A stretch of 40,566 bases of DNA from Sedimenticola selenatireducens (lineage in GTDB: Bacteria; Pseudomonadota; Gammaproteobacteria; Chromatiales; Chromatiaceae). Under the pieces are notes generated by a model. The model was not told the origin of the DNA, did not search any database, and saw only the letters and a list, made by a program, of their open reading frames with translations. Positions 15,627 to 18,367 of the stretch are shown here, piece after piece. A program made the position numbers and the translations under genes. Where the stretch lies: assembly GCF_007625115.1 (NCBI RefSeq), contig NZ_VMNH01000033.1, forward strand, positions 1-40,566, read 5' to 3'. Every line of letters begins with the position of its first letter. Within the stretch, counting starts at the first letter, position 1.

Positions 15627-17081
15627 ATGAATGATCTAATCTCCAAACTTTCACCTCAGCCACTTTGGCAACATTTTTATCAACTGACACAGATACCCCG
15701 ACCCTCGCATTTTGAGGCGGCTGTTCAAGCCCATGTCATCCGCTTGGGAGAACGTCTCGGGTTAGAGACGATCCGTGATCAAAACGACAATATCCTAATC
15801 AGAAAACCTGCAACTCCGGGGATGGAGCAGGCTCCCGGAGTGATATTGCAAGGTCATCTGGATATGGTGCCGCAGGCAAATGCGGATACACAGCATGATT
15901 TTACGCAAGATCCAATCACCGTAGTGATTGAGAAGGATTGGGTAAAAGCCAAGGGGACAACCCTCGGGGCGGATAATGGCATCGGTGTAGCGGCTGCATT
16001 GGCGGTACTCGAGTCACGTTCGATAAAACATGGTCCGATAGAGGCGCTCTTCACCAGCAATGAAGAGGATGGGATGACAGGGGCCTTCGGTGTTCAACCC
16101 GATCTTTTAAAAGGTACTGTTCTGCTGAATATGGATTCAGAAGATGAAGGCGTGCTTTGTATTGGCTGTGCTGGTGGAGCCAATGCCACAACCACCCTGC
16201 GCTATATTCCTGAGCCTCTGGAACCGGGCAAGATGGGCTATTTGATCGCTATACGTGGTTTGAAAGGCGGACACTCTGGGGTCGATATCCATCGCGGAAG
16301 AGCCAATGCCAATAAATTATTGTTTCGTCTGATCGCCGGGGCTGCCAATCTGTTTAAGCTCCAACTTTGTTGTGCATCTGGCGGCAATATGCGTAATGCC
16401 ATTCCTCGCGAAGGGACGGCTGCTGTGGCGGTTTCCGCTTCTGATGCGAATGCGTTTAGACGCTATGTATCGGAACAGTCGTCGCTCATCACGGCTGAAT
16501 ATGCTGTCAGTGAACCCGACTTGGTCGTTGAGTTTTCTCCAGATGACTCAGTCACTGACGCTCTCCCGGAGAAACTTCAACGAGATCTCTTGGATTGTTT
16601 AAGTGTGGTGCCGAATGGTGTGATGCGAATGAGCGATGCCATGCCGGGTCTGGTTGAAACCTCTACCAATCTGGCCATCGTTCGAGTTGAACAGGGCGCT
16701 ATTGAGATTAAGAGTTTACTGCGAAGTTCGGTAGATTCAGCGCGGGATGATCTAGCGGCGGTGCATCAGTCACTCTATAGACTCCTGGGGGCAGACACAC
16801 TCATAGACGGTGTTTACCCAGGATGGAAACCAAACACTGAATCTCCACTATTAAAAACAATGCGCCAAGTCTATCAAGAGATATTTGATGCAACGGCCGA
16901 AATTGGGGCCATTCATGCGGGTCTTGAGTGCGGGATTATCGGTGGGCGGTATGAAAACCTCGATATGATCTCATTTGGGCCAACCATACGTTATCCGCAT
17001 TCACCCGATGAGTGCATGCATATTCCATCGGTACAGCGTTTCTGGGATTTGCTGGTGGCAACCCTGTCACGACTGGTCTGA
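15627..17081 (+). CDS. pepD: aminoacyl-histidine dipeptidase (peptidase D, M20C)
   Basis: 484 residues, practically the length of E. coli PepD. M20 metal-site motifs occur in order: GHLDMVPQ, LGADNGIGVAAALAVLE, FTSNEEDGMTGAFG, NMDSEDEGVL, a dimerisation domain with RGLKGGHSGVDIHRGRANAN, and a final IHAGLECGIIGGR. It hydrolyses Xaa-His and other dipeptides in the cytoplasm with two zinc ions. It is transcribed alone, divergent from the DUF364 gene, and followed by a 126-bp gap before the phosphoribulokinase homologue. Confidence 0.93.
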   Translation: MNDLISKLSPQPLWQHFYQLTQIPRPSHFEAAVQAHVIRLGERLGLETIRDQNDNILIRKPATPGMEQAPGVILQGHLDMVPQANADTQHDFTQDPITVVIEKDWVKAKGTTLGADNGIGVAAALAVLESRSIKHGPIEALFTSNEEDGMTGAFGVQPDLLKGTVLLNMDSEDEGVLCIGCAGGANATTTLRYIPEPLEPGKMGYLIAIRGLKGGHSGVDIHRGRANANKLLFRLIAGAANLFKLQLCCASGGNMRNAIPREGTAAVAVSASDANAFRRYVSEQSSLITAEYAVSEPDLVVEFSPDDSVTDALPEKLQRDLLDCLSVVPNGVMRMSDAMPGLVETSTNLAIVRVEQGAIEIKSLLRSSVDSARDDLAAVHQSLYRLLGADTLIDGVYPGWKPNTESPLLKTMRQVYQEIFDATAEIGAIHAGLECGIIGGRYENLDMISFGPTIRYPHSPDECMHIPSVQRFWDLLVATLSRLV

Positions 17082-17207
17082 TTGCGGGTTGCCAAAAATT
17101 CATTTATAAAACAAAACGATAACCATAAGTTGTGGTTTCTGATGGCATAAGAAAAATTGAATGTATGGCGCATTGCAACAACCCGGGGAGTGTATTACGG
17201 TTTCGTA

Positions 17208-18086
17208 ATGTCTATTAAACATCCCATAATTGTTATTACTGGCTCCTCAGGCTCCGGCTCAAACAAAGTCAGTGATGTATTCAGCCACATTGCCTGGCGT
17301 GAAAAGATCAAGCCTTTCATTATTTCCGGCAGTGCCTTTCATCGATATGAACGCGATGAGATGGCGCAAAAGGTGGAAGAGGCCTGCGCCGATGGACGCT
17401 ATCTCAGCCATTTCAGCCCTGAGGGAAATCAGCTGGATCTGTTGGAGAATCTCTTCCGCGAGTTTTCAACTGATGGAACGGGGACATTTAGACACTATCT
17501 GCATACAGAGGAACAGTCTCTCGAATTTAATCAGCCGGTAGGTTCTTTCACGCCTTGGGAAACCATGCCAGAAGGGATTGATCTACTCGTCTATCAAGGT
17601 CTACACGGTGCTTTTGTTAGTCCGGACATCGATATAGCGGGCTATGCAGATTTGACACTTGGGGTAACGCCGATTGTGAATCTGGAATGGATCCAAAAGA
17701 TACATACGGATATCAAAAACCGGGGTTATACCTTGGAGTCCGTACGGGGTGCAATCCAACATCGCCTGCACGATTATGTACATTACATAACGCCTCAATT
17801 CTCCCACACAGATATCAACTTTCAGCGCATACCGTTGGTAGATACATCCAATCCATTTGATGCCAGAGATGTCCCGCAAAATGATGAGAGCATGGTGGTG
17901 ATCAGTTTCAAAGAGCCAAGAGATCATGACTTTGCTTTTCTTCTGAGTCGTATAGAAGATTCCTTTATGTCGCGTCGCAACTGTCTGGTCGTTCCGGGTG
18001 GTAAAATGGAGTTTGCTATGGAGATGTTGTTGAACCCATTAGTGCATGAGATGATGGAAAAACGACGTCAAGCTCAGGAGTATTAA
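17208..18086 (+). CDS. phosphoribulokinase homologue with degenerate active site (probable pseudoenzyme)
   Basis: 292 residues, collinear with proteobacterial class I phosphoribulokinase (Calvin cycle, ATP + ribulose 5-phosphate). Conserved stretches include AFHRYERDEM, FSHF-like SHFSPEGNQ, NLEWIQKIH, PQFSHTDINFQR, VDTSNPFDAR and VVPGGKMEFAMEM. Residues essential in the Rhodobacter enzyme are changed: catalytic base Asp42 is Ser42, Walker-B Glu131 is Gln130, Arg168 is Thr167, and P-loop GSSGAGT(S/T)T is GSSGSGSNK (12-20). R31, H45, R49, K164 and R172 remain. The frame is intact, so this is more likely a regulatory or ligand-binding paralogue than a pseudogene. I start at ATG 17208, the conserved MSIKHPII; upstream in-frame codons add 17 unsupported residues. 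The ribosome binding site is weak. Confidence 0.85.
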   Translation: MSIKHPIIVITGSSGSGSNKVSDVFSHIAWREKIKPFIISGSAFHRYERDEMAQKVEEACADGRYLSHFSPEGNQLDLLENLFREFSTDGTGTFRHYLHTEEQSLEFNQPVGSFTPWETMPEGIDLLVYQGLHGAFVSPDIDIAGYADLTLGVTPIVNLEWIQKIHTDIKNRGYTLESVRGAIQHRLHDYVHYITPQFSHTDINFQRIPLVDTSNPFDARDVPQNDESMVVISFKEPRDHDFAFLLSRIEDSFMSRRNCLVVPGGKMEFAMEMLLNPLVHEMMEKRRQAQEY

Positions 18087-18367
18087 TTATCACTTCCGAA
18101 AGAGAAAAAGATCGCGCTATTCTTCACGCCATGCGTAAAGTGTTGACTGCTGTGATTCGCGATACAACGCCCCCACCGGGTATGCGACATACCTTAACGG
18201 ATGAAACGATTCAGGATATGCGTGTCTGTCTCGGTATGATTACCGCGAGGGAGAAAGAGTTGGGTGATGAGGCTGGAGAGGCCCCGTCACGTCCCTATTA
18301 TGTGGACGAACAACCGACCTCTAAGGTTGTCCCGTTTGACCTGTCAGGCAAGCAAGATAAAGAGTGA
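18086..18367 (+). CDS. small conserved hypothetical protein, probable ATT start
   Basis: From the first ATG (18131) it is 78 residues. The in-frame upstream codons read ITSEREKDRAILHA and join naturally to MRKVLTAVIRDTTPPPGMRH. No ATG, GTG or TTG occurs between the frame's last stop (18047) and 18131. AGGAG at 18076-18080 stands 5 nt before an ATT at 18086, which overlaps the TAA of the preceding gene by one base; the ATG at 18131 has no ribosome binding site. I therefore favour an ATT start (93 residues). I recall similar short proteins in other proteobacteria, sometimes labelled segregation and condensation protein A, but I would not trust that name. It is soluble, with a charged C-terminus, and coupled to the phosphoribulokinase homologue. 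Confidence 0.65.
   Translation: MITSEREKDRAILHAMRKVLTAVIRDTTPPPGMRHTLTDETIQDMRVCLGMITAREKELGDEAGEAPSRPYYVDEQPTSKVVPFDLSGKQDKE

What the first reader, a model, noticed from the sequence alone, without database searches (positions are those of the whole stretch)
17208..18086. Phosphoribulokinase homologue that has lost its catalytic residues
The protein aligns end to end with class I phosphoribulokinase and keeps R31, H45, R49, K164 and R172. The catalytic Asp42 is Ser, the Walker-B Glu131 is Gln130, Arg168 is Thr167, and the P-loop T(S/T)T is SNK. The frame is intact and coupled to a small conserved gene. A maintained pseudokinase could act as a decoy subunit, a regulator of the true enzyme or of Calvin-cycle genes, or a sensor of ATP or sugar phosphate. 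I am not aware of such a paralogue being described.
Basis: partly seen in the sequence, partly recalled or inferred. Interest (0 to 1): 0.8.

Follow-up and report, generated by a model that had tools for sequence, protein, structure and literature searches.

The report
Dismantled phosphoribulokinase paralogue, kept by selection
A sulfur-oxidizing bacterium and its relatives carry, beside their complete Calvin-cycle kinases, an extra copy whose catalytic residues are gone but which evolution still protects, so it may sense or regulate rather than catalyse.

Summary
Confirmed and extended. Window 17208-18086 (genus Sedimenticola) encodes a full-length class I phosphoribulokinase (PRK) homologue with D42S, E131Q, R168T and P-loop TST to SNK. 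The genome holds two further PRKs with canonical residues, one near RuBisCO. The dismantled copy is syntenic in the 8 Sedimenticola genomes where the locus is assembled; the ninth has an assembly gap. It is under purifying selection (median pairwise dN/dS 0.067; the other two PRKs 0.028 and 0.048). Orthologues lie in two more genera (p1, 10 genomes). A second lineage (p2, 7) has D42S and E131R; a third (p3, 17) mostly D42N with H45R and R173K. Together: 34 of 210 family genomes, 8 of 61 genera. Of 100 sites nearly invariant in 96 canonical rows, 78 are unchanged in all 10 p1 proteins, sugar-phosphate residues included; D42, E131, R168 and T18 are not. Best reading: a non-catalytic PRK that still binds a sugar phosphate and regulates the true PRK. 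Inactivity is well supported by sequence; the regulatory role is inference. The open-literature searches found no description.

The parts
17208..18086 (+). Pseudo-phosphoribulokinase (292 aa): class I PRK homologue with D42S, E131Q, R168T, P-loop TST to SNK; sugar-phosphate residues kept
17082..17207 (+). Upstream intergenic region with stretches conserved, with few mismatches, in 8 aligned Sedimenticola (around CATAAGAAAAATTGAAT and TGTATTACGGTT); unknown leader or promoter element; the 32-nt stretch occurs once in the genome
18131..18367 (+). Small gene, 78 aa, no Pfam or NCBIfam match at E 0.001; gap-free 44-nt spacer after the PRK stop codon in 8 of 8 Sedimenticola; found away from PRK in other genera
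15627..17081 (+). Upstream syntenic neighbour: beta-Ala-His dipeptidase family (TIGR01893)

Best explanation
The gene encodes a non-catalytic phosphoribulokinase paralogue (a pseudoenzyme). Shown by sequence: the catalytic base Asp42, the Walker-B acid Glu131, the ATP-side Arg168 and the P-loop residues 18-20 are replaced, while the residues of the ribulose-5-phosphate side (H45, R49, Y98, H100, K165, R173) are intact, and the protein is under purifying selection beside two canonical PRKs. Inferred: it no longer makes RuBP but still binds a sugar phosphate, and acts as a regulatory partner of the true PRK, either by joining mixed PRK oligomers (R. sphaeroides PRK is a homo-octamer) or by competing for or buffering Ru5P/RuBP, thereby adjusting RuBP supply and, through RuBP and CbbR, Calvin-cycle gene expression.
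For: Losses at 42, 131 and 168 in 8 of 8 Sedimenticola and, with other residues, in the 2 further p1 genomes. Of 100 near-invariant canonical sites, 78 are unchanged in all 10 p1 proteins, including H45, R49, Y98, H100, K165 and R173; A16, T18, E40, D42, E131, R168 and R186 are changed in all ten. dN/dS median 0.067 (16 of 28 pairs usable). Two canonical PRKs in the same genome, one about 5 kb from a RuBisCO large-chain gene and near a LysR gene. Residues 221-270, in the C-terminal domain that carries the oligomer contacts of RsPRK (PMC5241800 section 6), are 64% identical to the RuBisCO-linked PRK, inside the range of six other PRKs compared with it (38-68%), while residues 1-60 and 126-180 fall below their range (48 vs 58-68%; 58 vs 67-80%). 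PRK is a reported link to cbb gene control, with RuBP as CbbR effector (PMC4806589, sections 16 and 18).
Against: No interaction, ligand or expression data. The locus is not near cbb genes and the neighbours differ between the genera examined. Within the genus, residues 221-270 of the pseudo-PRK are less conserved (0.844 mean pairwise identity) than in the RuBisCO-linked PRK (0.961), and p2 is lower there (46-54%), so the oligomer argument is weak. Seven of the 14 changed near-invariant sites lie outside the cluster named above. The AlphaFold model was too poor to examine the pocket (pLDDT 42.5). Co-occurrence with another PRK is expected anyway: 192 of 210 family genomes have a match.
Confidence: 0.43

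Rival explanations
1. It is a stand-alone sensor or sink for a sugar bisphosphate such as RuBP, not a PRK subunit. Replacing the two acidic catalytic residues by neutral or basic ones and adding a basic residue in the P-loop makes the pocket more positive, so a bisphosphate (one phosphate in the Ru5P site, one in the P-loop) could stay bound.
For: E131 becomes Q (9) or K (1) in p1 and R in all 7 p2; D42 becomes S or G in 17 of 17; position 20 is K or R in all 10 p1. P-loop G12, G15 and G17 and the sugar-phosphate residues are kept in all 10 p1.
Against: The charge argument is inference without a usable structure; R168 is lost in p1, which works the other way; no conserved partner gene across the genera examined.
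Confidence: 0.23
2. It is a neofunctionalised enzyme: another substrate or another reaction on a sugar phosphate, using a different catalytic residue.
For: Low dN/dS and a conserved pocket are equally compatible with a new enzyme; p3 keeps T18 and R168 but changes the sugar side (H45R and R173K in 17 of 17, H100 to E/R/Q), so substrate change may occur among these paralogues.
Against: In p1 the metal and nucleotide side is degraded, and positions 19, 42, 131 and 168 vary among members (N/A/W/Y/H, S/G, Q/K, T/V/N), unlike a new conserved active site.
Confidence: 0.23
3. It keeps weak but useful PRK activity despite the substitutions.
For: NCBIfam equivalog match above cut-off.
Against: Catalytic base, Walker-B acid, ATP-side Arg and P-loop residues are all replaced; the 96 rows treated as canonical are invariant at D42, E131 and R168; two complete PRKs are present.
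Confidence: 0.07
4. It is a decaying gene without function, or an artefact of sequencing or assembly.
For: One of 9 Sedimenticola genomes (G008) shows no copy; dN/dS is somewhat higher than in the two canonical copies.
Against: G008's locus falls in an assembly gap; no stop inside the match in 10 of 10 p1; dN/dS 0.067; the same substitutions in separately assembled genomes.
Confidence: 0.02

Closest known systems
Class I (bacterial-type) phosphoribulokinase (R. sphaeroides PRK, PDB 1A7J; NCBIfam NF011997)
   Same: Full-length colinear homology, P-loop glycines, sugar-phosphate residues, C-terminal domain
   Different: Catalytic base, Walker-B acid, ATP-side Arg and P-loop residues 18-20 replaced; not beside cbb genes in the loci examined
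Pseudokinases and pseudoenzymes in general
   Same: Paralogue of an active enzyme, active-site residues lost, one ligand side conserved, under selection
   Different: None found for PRK in the searched library; an acquired role is not shown
p3 PRK-like paralogues (g66, G107, G010; seen in this work)
   Same: Same bacterial family, possible sister group (support 91/88, not firm); D42 lost in 16 of 17
   Different: Keep T18 and R168, change the sugar side, carry an extra segment after about residue 136

Membership tests
Phosphoribulokinase / uridine kinase superfamily (PF00485) | Match to the family profile over its length | tested here: met
   E 3.4e-49, profile positions 1-196 of 196
Class I phosphoribulokinase enzyme | Full-length homology to bacterial PRK | tested here: met
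   1A7J residues 1-286, E 1.5e-89; NF011997 417 bits over a cut-off of 362
Class I phosphoribulokinase enzyme | Catalytic Asp42 and Walker-B Glu131 | tested here: not met
   S and Q; 96 of 96 rows treated as canonical have D and E
Class I phosphoribulokinase enzyme | ATP-side Arg168 and P-loop residues 18-20 | tested here: not met
   T167 and SNK
Class I phosphoribulokinase enzyme | Ru5P-side residues H45, R49, H100, K165, R173 | tested here: met
   kept in all 10 p1 proteins
Class I phosphoribulokinase enzyme | PRK activity | not testable with these tools
   needs purified protein
Pseudoenzyme (PRK-derived) | Maintained by selection, with a residue-complete paralogue present | tested here: met
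   dN/dS 0.067; two canonical PRKs in the same genome
Pseudoenzyme (PRK-derived) | Demonstrated lack of activity and an acquired role | not testable with these tools
   inferred from residues only

The most novel reading that the evidence does not exclude
An old group of PRK-derived pseudoenzymes exists in one family of sulfur-oxidizing Gammaproteobacteria, dismantled in three ways (p1: ATP and catalytic side lost, sugar side kept; p2: the two catalytic acids turned to Ser and Arg; p3: sugar side and base altered, T18 and R168 kept), whose members act as ligand-sensing regulatory subunits of the true PRK or as RuBP sensors, a layer of Calvin-cycle control not known before.
Probability: 0.25. 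Interest if true: 0.8.

Novelty: new variant of a known kind. Interest (0 to 1): 0.58.

Why it matters
PRK is one of the two enzymes considered unique to the Calvin cycle, and its product RuBP is a reported effector of CbbR. A conserved PRK without catalytic residues would be a candidate for an undescribed control layer in chemoautotrophs. It also has a practical side: a curated model calls it phosphoribulokinase above cut-off, so inferring carbon fixation from a PRK hit in an incomplete genome can go wrong unless residues 42, 131 and 168 are checked.

Tried and rejected
Structure: AlphaFold2 with P0001 and the six search for related loci relatives (A2) gave pLDDT 42.5, pTM 0.35, not usable, so no fold search was run.

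Loss of the gene in G008 was rejected: its contigs C42 and C81 end inside the locus.

The small gene as an obligate partner was rejected: it occurs in 7 genomes outside the genus with no PRK homologue in the short flanks examined. A link to form I RuBisCO was not supported: the RuBisCO small subunit is present in G000 and G002 but not found in G001 and G003-G007, all pseudo-PRK carriers; G004 and G007 are only 65% and 78% complete. A shared promoter motif: the conserved 32-nt upstream stretch occurs once in the genome (3 mismatches allowed); sigma-70 and terminator scans gave nothing above shuffles.

One origin of p1, p2 and p3 is suggested but not shown: p1+p2 96/94 with all columns but with a warning that long branches meet, 84/40 with nine functional columns left out, and p1+p2+p3 91/88.

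Literature: (phosphoribulokinase with pseudokinase or pseudoenzyme; phosphoribulokinase-like) found no such paralogue in the held open-licence library; this is not proof of absence. Other searches: (listings only). Papers opened: PMC4806589 (outline and sections 16 and 18), PMC5241800 (section 6 and passages), PMC9978339 and PMC11528492 (passages). The assignment of D42 as base, E131 as Walker-B acid and R49, H100 and R173 to the Ru5P side in R. sphaeroides numbering is partly recalled or inferred; H45 and K165 (Ru5P) and R168 (ATP) are stated in PMC5241800 section 6.

Full report
What is there. Window 17208-18086 (+) is an open frame of 292 codons plus stop. It is a full-length class I phosphoribulokinase homologue by Pfam, NCBIfam and comparison with R. 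sphaeroides PRK 1A7J. In an alignment with 1A7J and 50 other homologues (52 rows in all) the catalytic Asp42 is Ser42, Glu131 is Gln130, Arg168 is Thr167, and the P-loop Thr18-Ser19-Thr20 is Ser-Asn-Lys; Arg31, His45, Arg49, His100, Lys165, Asp169, Arg173 and Arg187 are kept.

The genome. The window is contig 18 of a 4.03-Mb genome whose same-genus relatives correspond to named Sedimenticola records (titles: S. selenatireducens, S. hydrogenitrophicus and metagenome-assembled genomes). It has two more PRK homologues, 55% and 52% identical to the window protein, both with the canonical residues. One (C2, L002/L004) lies about 5 kb from a RuBisCO large-chain gene with a divergent LysR regulator; the other (C24, L003/L005) lies in a region with a nitrate reductase beta gene. 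A RuBisCO small subunit is also present in G000. So the dismantled copy is not the cell's only PRK.

Conservation in the genus. Of 8 other same-genus genomes, 7 have an orthologue (78-86% identity). The eighth, G008, has contig ends inside the locus on both sides, so its absence is not established. All 8 loci (window included) lie between a dipeptidase gene and the small gene, followed by genes of the carbon-nitrogen hydrolase and PAD_porph families. All 8 have S or G at 42, Q at 131, T or V at 168, and S at 18. Pairwise Nei-Gojobori dN/dS has median 0.067 (16 of 28 pairs usable, the rest saturated at synonymous sites), against 0.028 for the RuBisCO-linked PRK (19 of 21 pairs; G005 left out as truncated, G008 not included) and 0.048 for the third copy (20 of 28; G008 not included). 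Many synonymous distances exceed 1, so the values are rough. Selection on the protein is strong, though somewhat relaxed relative to the two canonical copies.

Wider distribution. Among 210 genomes of the same family, 192 have a match to the window protein. Two more orthologues, in G018 and G108 (two further genera, 64% and 66% identity), complete lineage p1 (10 genomes; G108 has E131K, and both have R168N). A second lineage, p2, occurs in 7 genomes of two genera at E up to 1e-100; all seven have D42S, T18S and E131R but keep R168. A third, p3, occurs in 17 genomes of three genera at the same threshold: D42N in 16 of 17, H45R and R173K in 17 of 17, E131 D in 15, H100 E in 15, with T18 and R168 kept in 17 and an extra segment after about residue 136; in 5 of the 17 rows the matched stretch holds one stop codon, which I did not examine. 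In total 34 of 210 genomes and 8 of 61 genera carry a member.

Outside the family, 369 genomes drawn from the class gave 48 matches besides the window's own at E up to 1e-105; the 29 of them that were fetched are all canonical at D42, E131 and R168. That threshold would miss copies as divergent as p2 or p3, so those lineages are not excluded elsewhere. A pattern scan of genome contigs found six loci, all Sedimenticola; it reaches close relatives only.

Company of a canonical PRK. In 9 of the 10 p1 genomes at least one further PRK with D42, E131 and R168 was checked. In G108, G048 and G111-G114 a second match was seen but not checked residue by residue. In three p3 genomes (G178, G180, G186; 84-97% complete) the only matches are pieces of E about 1e-50, as p3 copies give, so p3 may occur without a canonical PRK; this counts against a regulatory-subunit role for p3.

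Phylogeny. With nine functional columns removed (122 rows, three fragments left out), p1, p2 and p3 are each well supported (100/99, 100/100, 100/99). p1+p2 (84/40) and p1+p2+p3 (91/88) group together without firm support. With all columns p1+p2 had 96/94, but with a warning that long branches meet.

What was lost and what was kept. Of 125 aligned rows, 96 were treated as canonical (23 p1-p3 rows, 1A7J, three fragments, and the divergent L027 and L030 were set aside). Of 100 sites with one residue in at least 95% of these, 78 are unchanged in all 10 p1 proteins, 14 have a different commonest residue, and 8 are changed in some members. Seven of the 14 are A16, T18, E40, D42, E131, R168 and R186, mostly the nucleotide, metal and base side; the other seven (24, 29, 43, 87, 104, 148, 188) I could not assign, apart from 43 being next to the base. 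The kept sites include R31, H45, R49, Y98, H100, H134, K165, D169, R173 and R187, which include the Ru5P side (H45 and K165 for Ru5P and R168 for ATP are given in PMC5241800 section 6; the remaining assignments are partly recalled or inferred). Against the RuBisCO-linked PRK of the same genome, identity in residues 221-270 is 0.64, within the range of six other PRKs compared with it (0.38-0.68; L003, 1A7J, L020, L027, L030, L147), whereas residues 1-60 and 126-180 are below that range (0.48 vs 0.58-0.68; 0.58 vs 0.67-0.80). The C-terminal domain carries the oligomer contacts in the octameric R. sphaeroides enzyme (PMC5241800 section 6). Against this, within the genus residues 221-270 are less conserved in the pseudo-PRK (0.844) than in the RuBisCO-linked PRK (0.961).

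How it most likely works. Without base, Walker-B acid and ATP-side residues, phosphorylation of Ru5P is not expected (inference from established PRK mechanism; passages of PMC9978339 describe the Asp base). An intact sugar-phosphate side suggests a non-catalytic, ligand-binding protein; partnership with the true PRK is the most economical role but is inference. R. sphaeroides offers a precedent for PRK as a control point: the authors link NADH-activated PRK to cbb gene expression, with RuBP as CbbR effector (PMC4806589, sections 16 and 18). A rival is a stand-alone sugar-bisphosphate sensor: the acid-to-neutral or acid-to-basic changes at 42 and 131, plus Lys or Arg at P-loop position 20 in p1, would make the pocket friendlier to RuBP. 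A new enzymatic function cannot be excluded. Decay and artefact are very unlikely.

Limits. No usable structure, no expression or interaction data. Literature searches covered only the open-licence library.

Noticed in passing
L173-L189 (p3; e.g. L158:477-1520): A separate PRK-like paralogue in 17 family genomes (15 of one genus, g66) with D42N (16 of 17), H45R, R173K, H100E/R/Q, T18 and R168 kept, and an extra segment after about residue 136: perhaps a kinase with a new substrate or an ATP-binding pseudoenzyme. In three of these genomes no other full PRK match was seen.
   Followed up: partly
L021, L023, L096, L113-L116 (p2): Seven PRK paralogues with D42S and E131R but R168 and P-loop Ser19 kept; in different gene neighbourhoods in the two examined (G009, G013).
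   Followed up: partly
L147-L155, L163, L164: A divergent second PRK with canonical D42, E131 and R168 but R234H and R257G (and mostly a changed R221); R234 and R257 are, from recall, NADH-site residues, so these may have lost that regulation.
   Followed up: no
window 17082-17207: The intergenic region before the pseudo-PRK has stretches conserved with few mismatches in 8 Sedimenticola, including TGTATTACGGTT, which cannot be read in frame with the PRK in all of them (one base more in 3 of 8); the 32-nt stretch is unique in the genome.
   Followed up: partly
window 18131-18367: Uncharacterised 78-aa protein with no Pfam or NCBIfam match, found in 15 of 24 searched relatives in different contexts.
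   Followed up: partly
L003 / L005 (G000:C24:132474): A third PRK, canonical at D42, E131 and R168, in 9 of 9 Sedimenticola and, by the tree, in G049 and G050; in G000 it lies in a region with a nitrate reductase beta gene; role unknown.
   Followed up: partly
L161 (G109:C62:2000-3900): A PRK copy in G109 split into two open frames by stops, in a genus (g57) whose other member carries p1.
   Followed up: no
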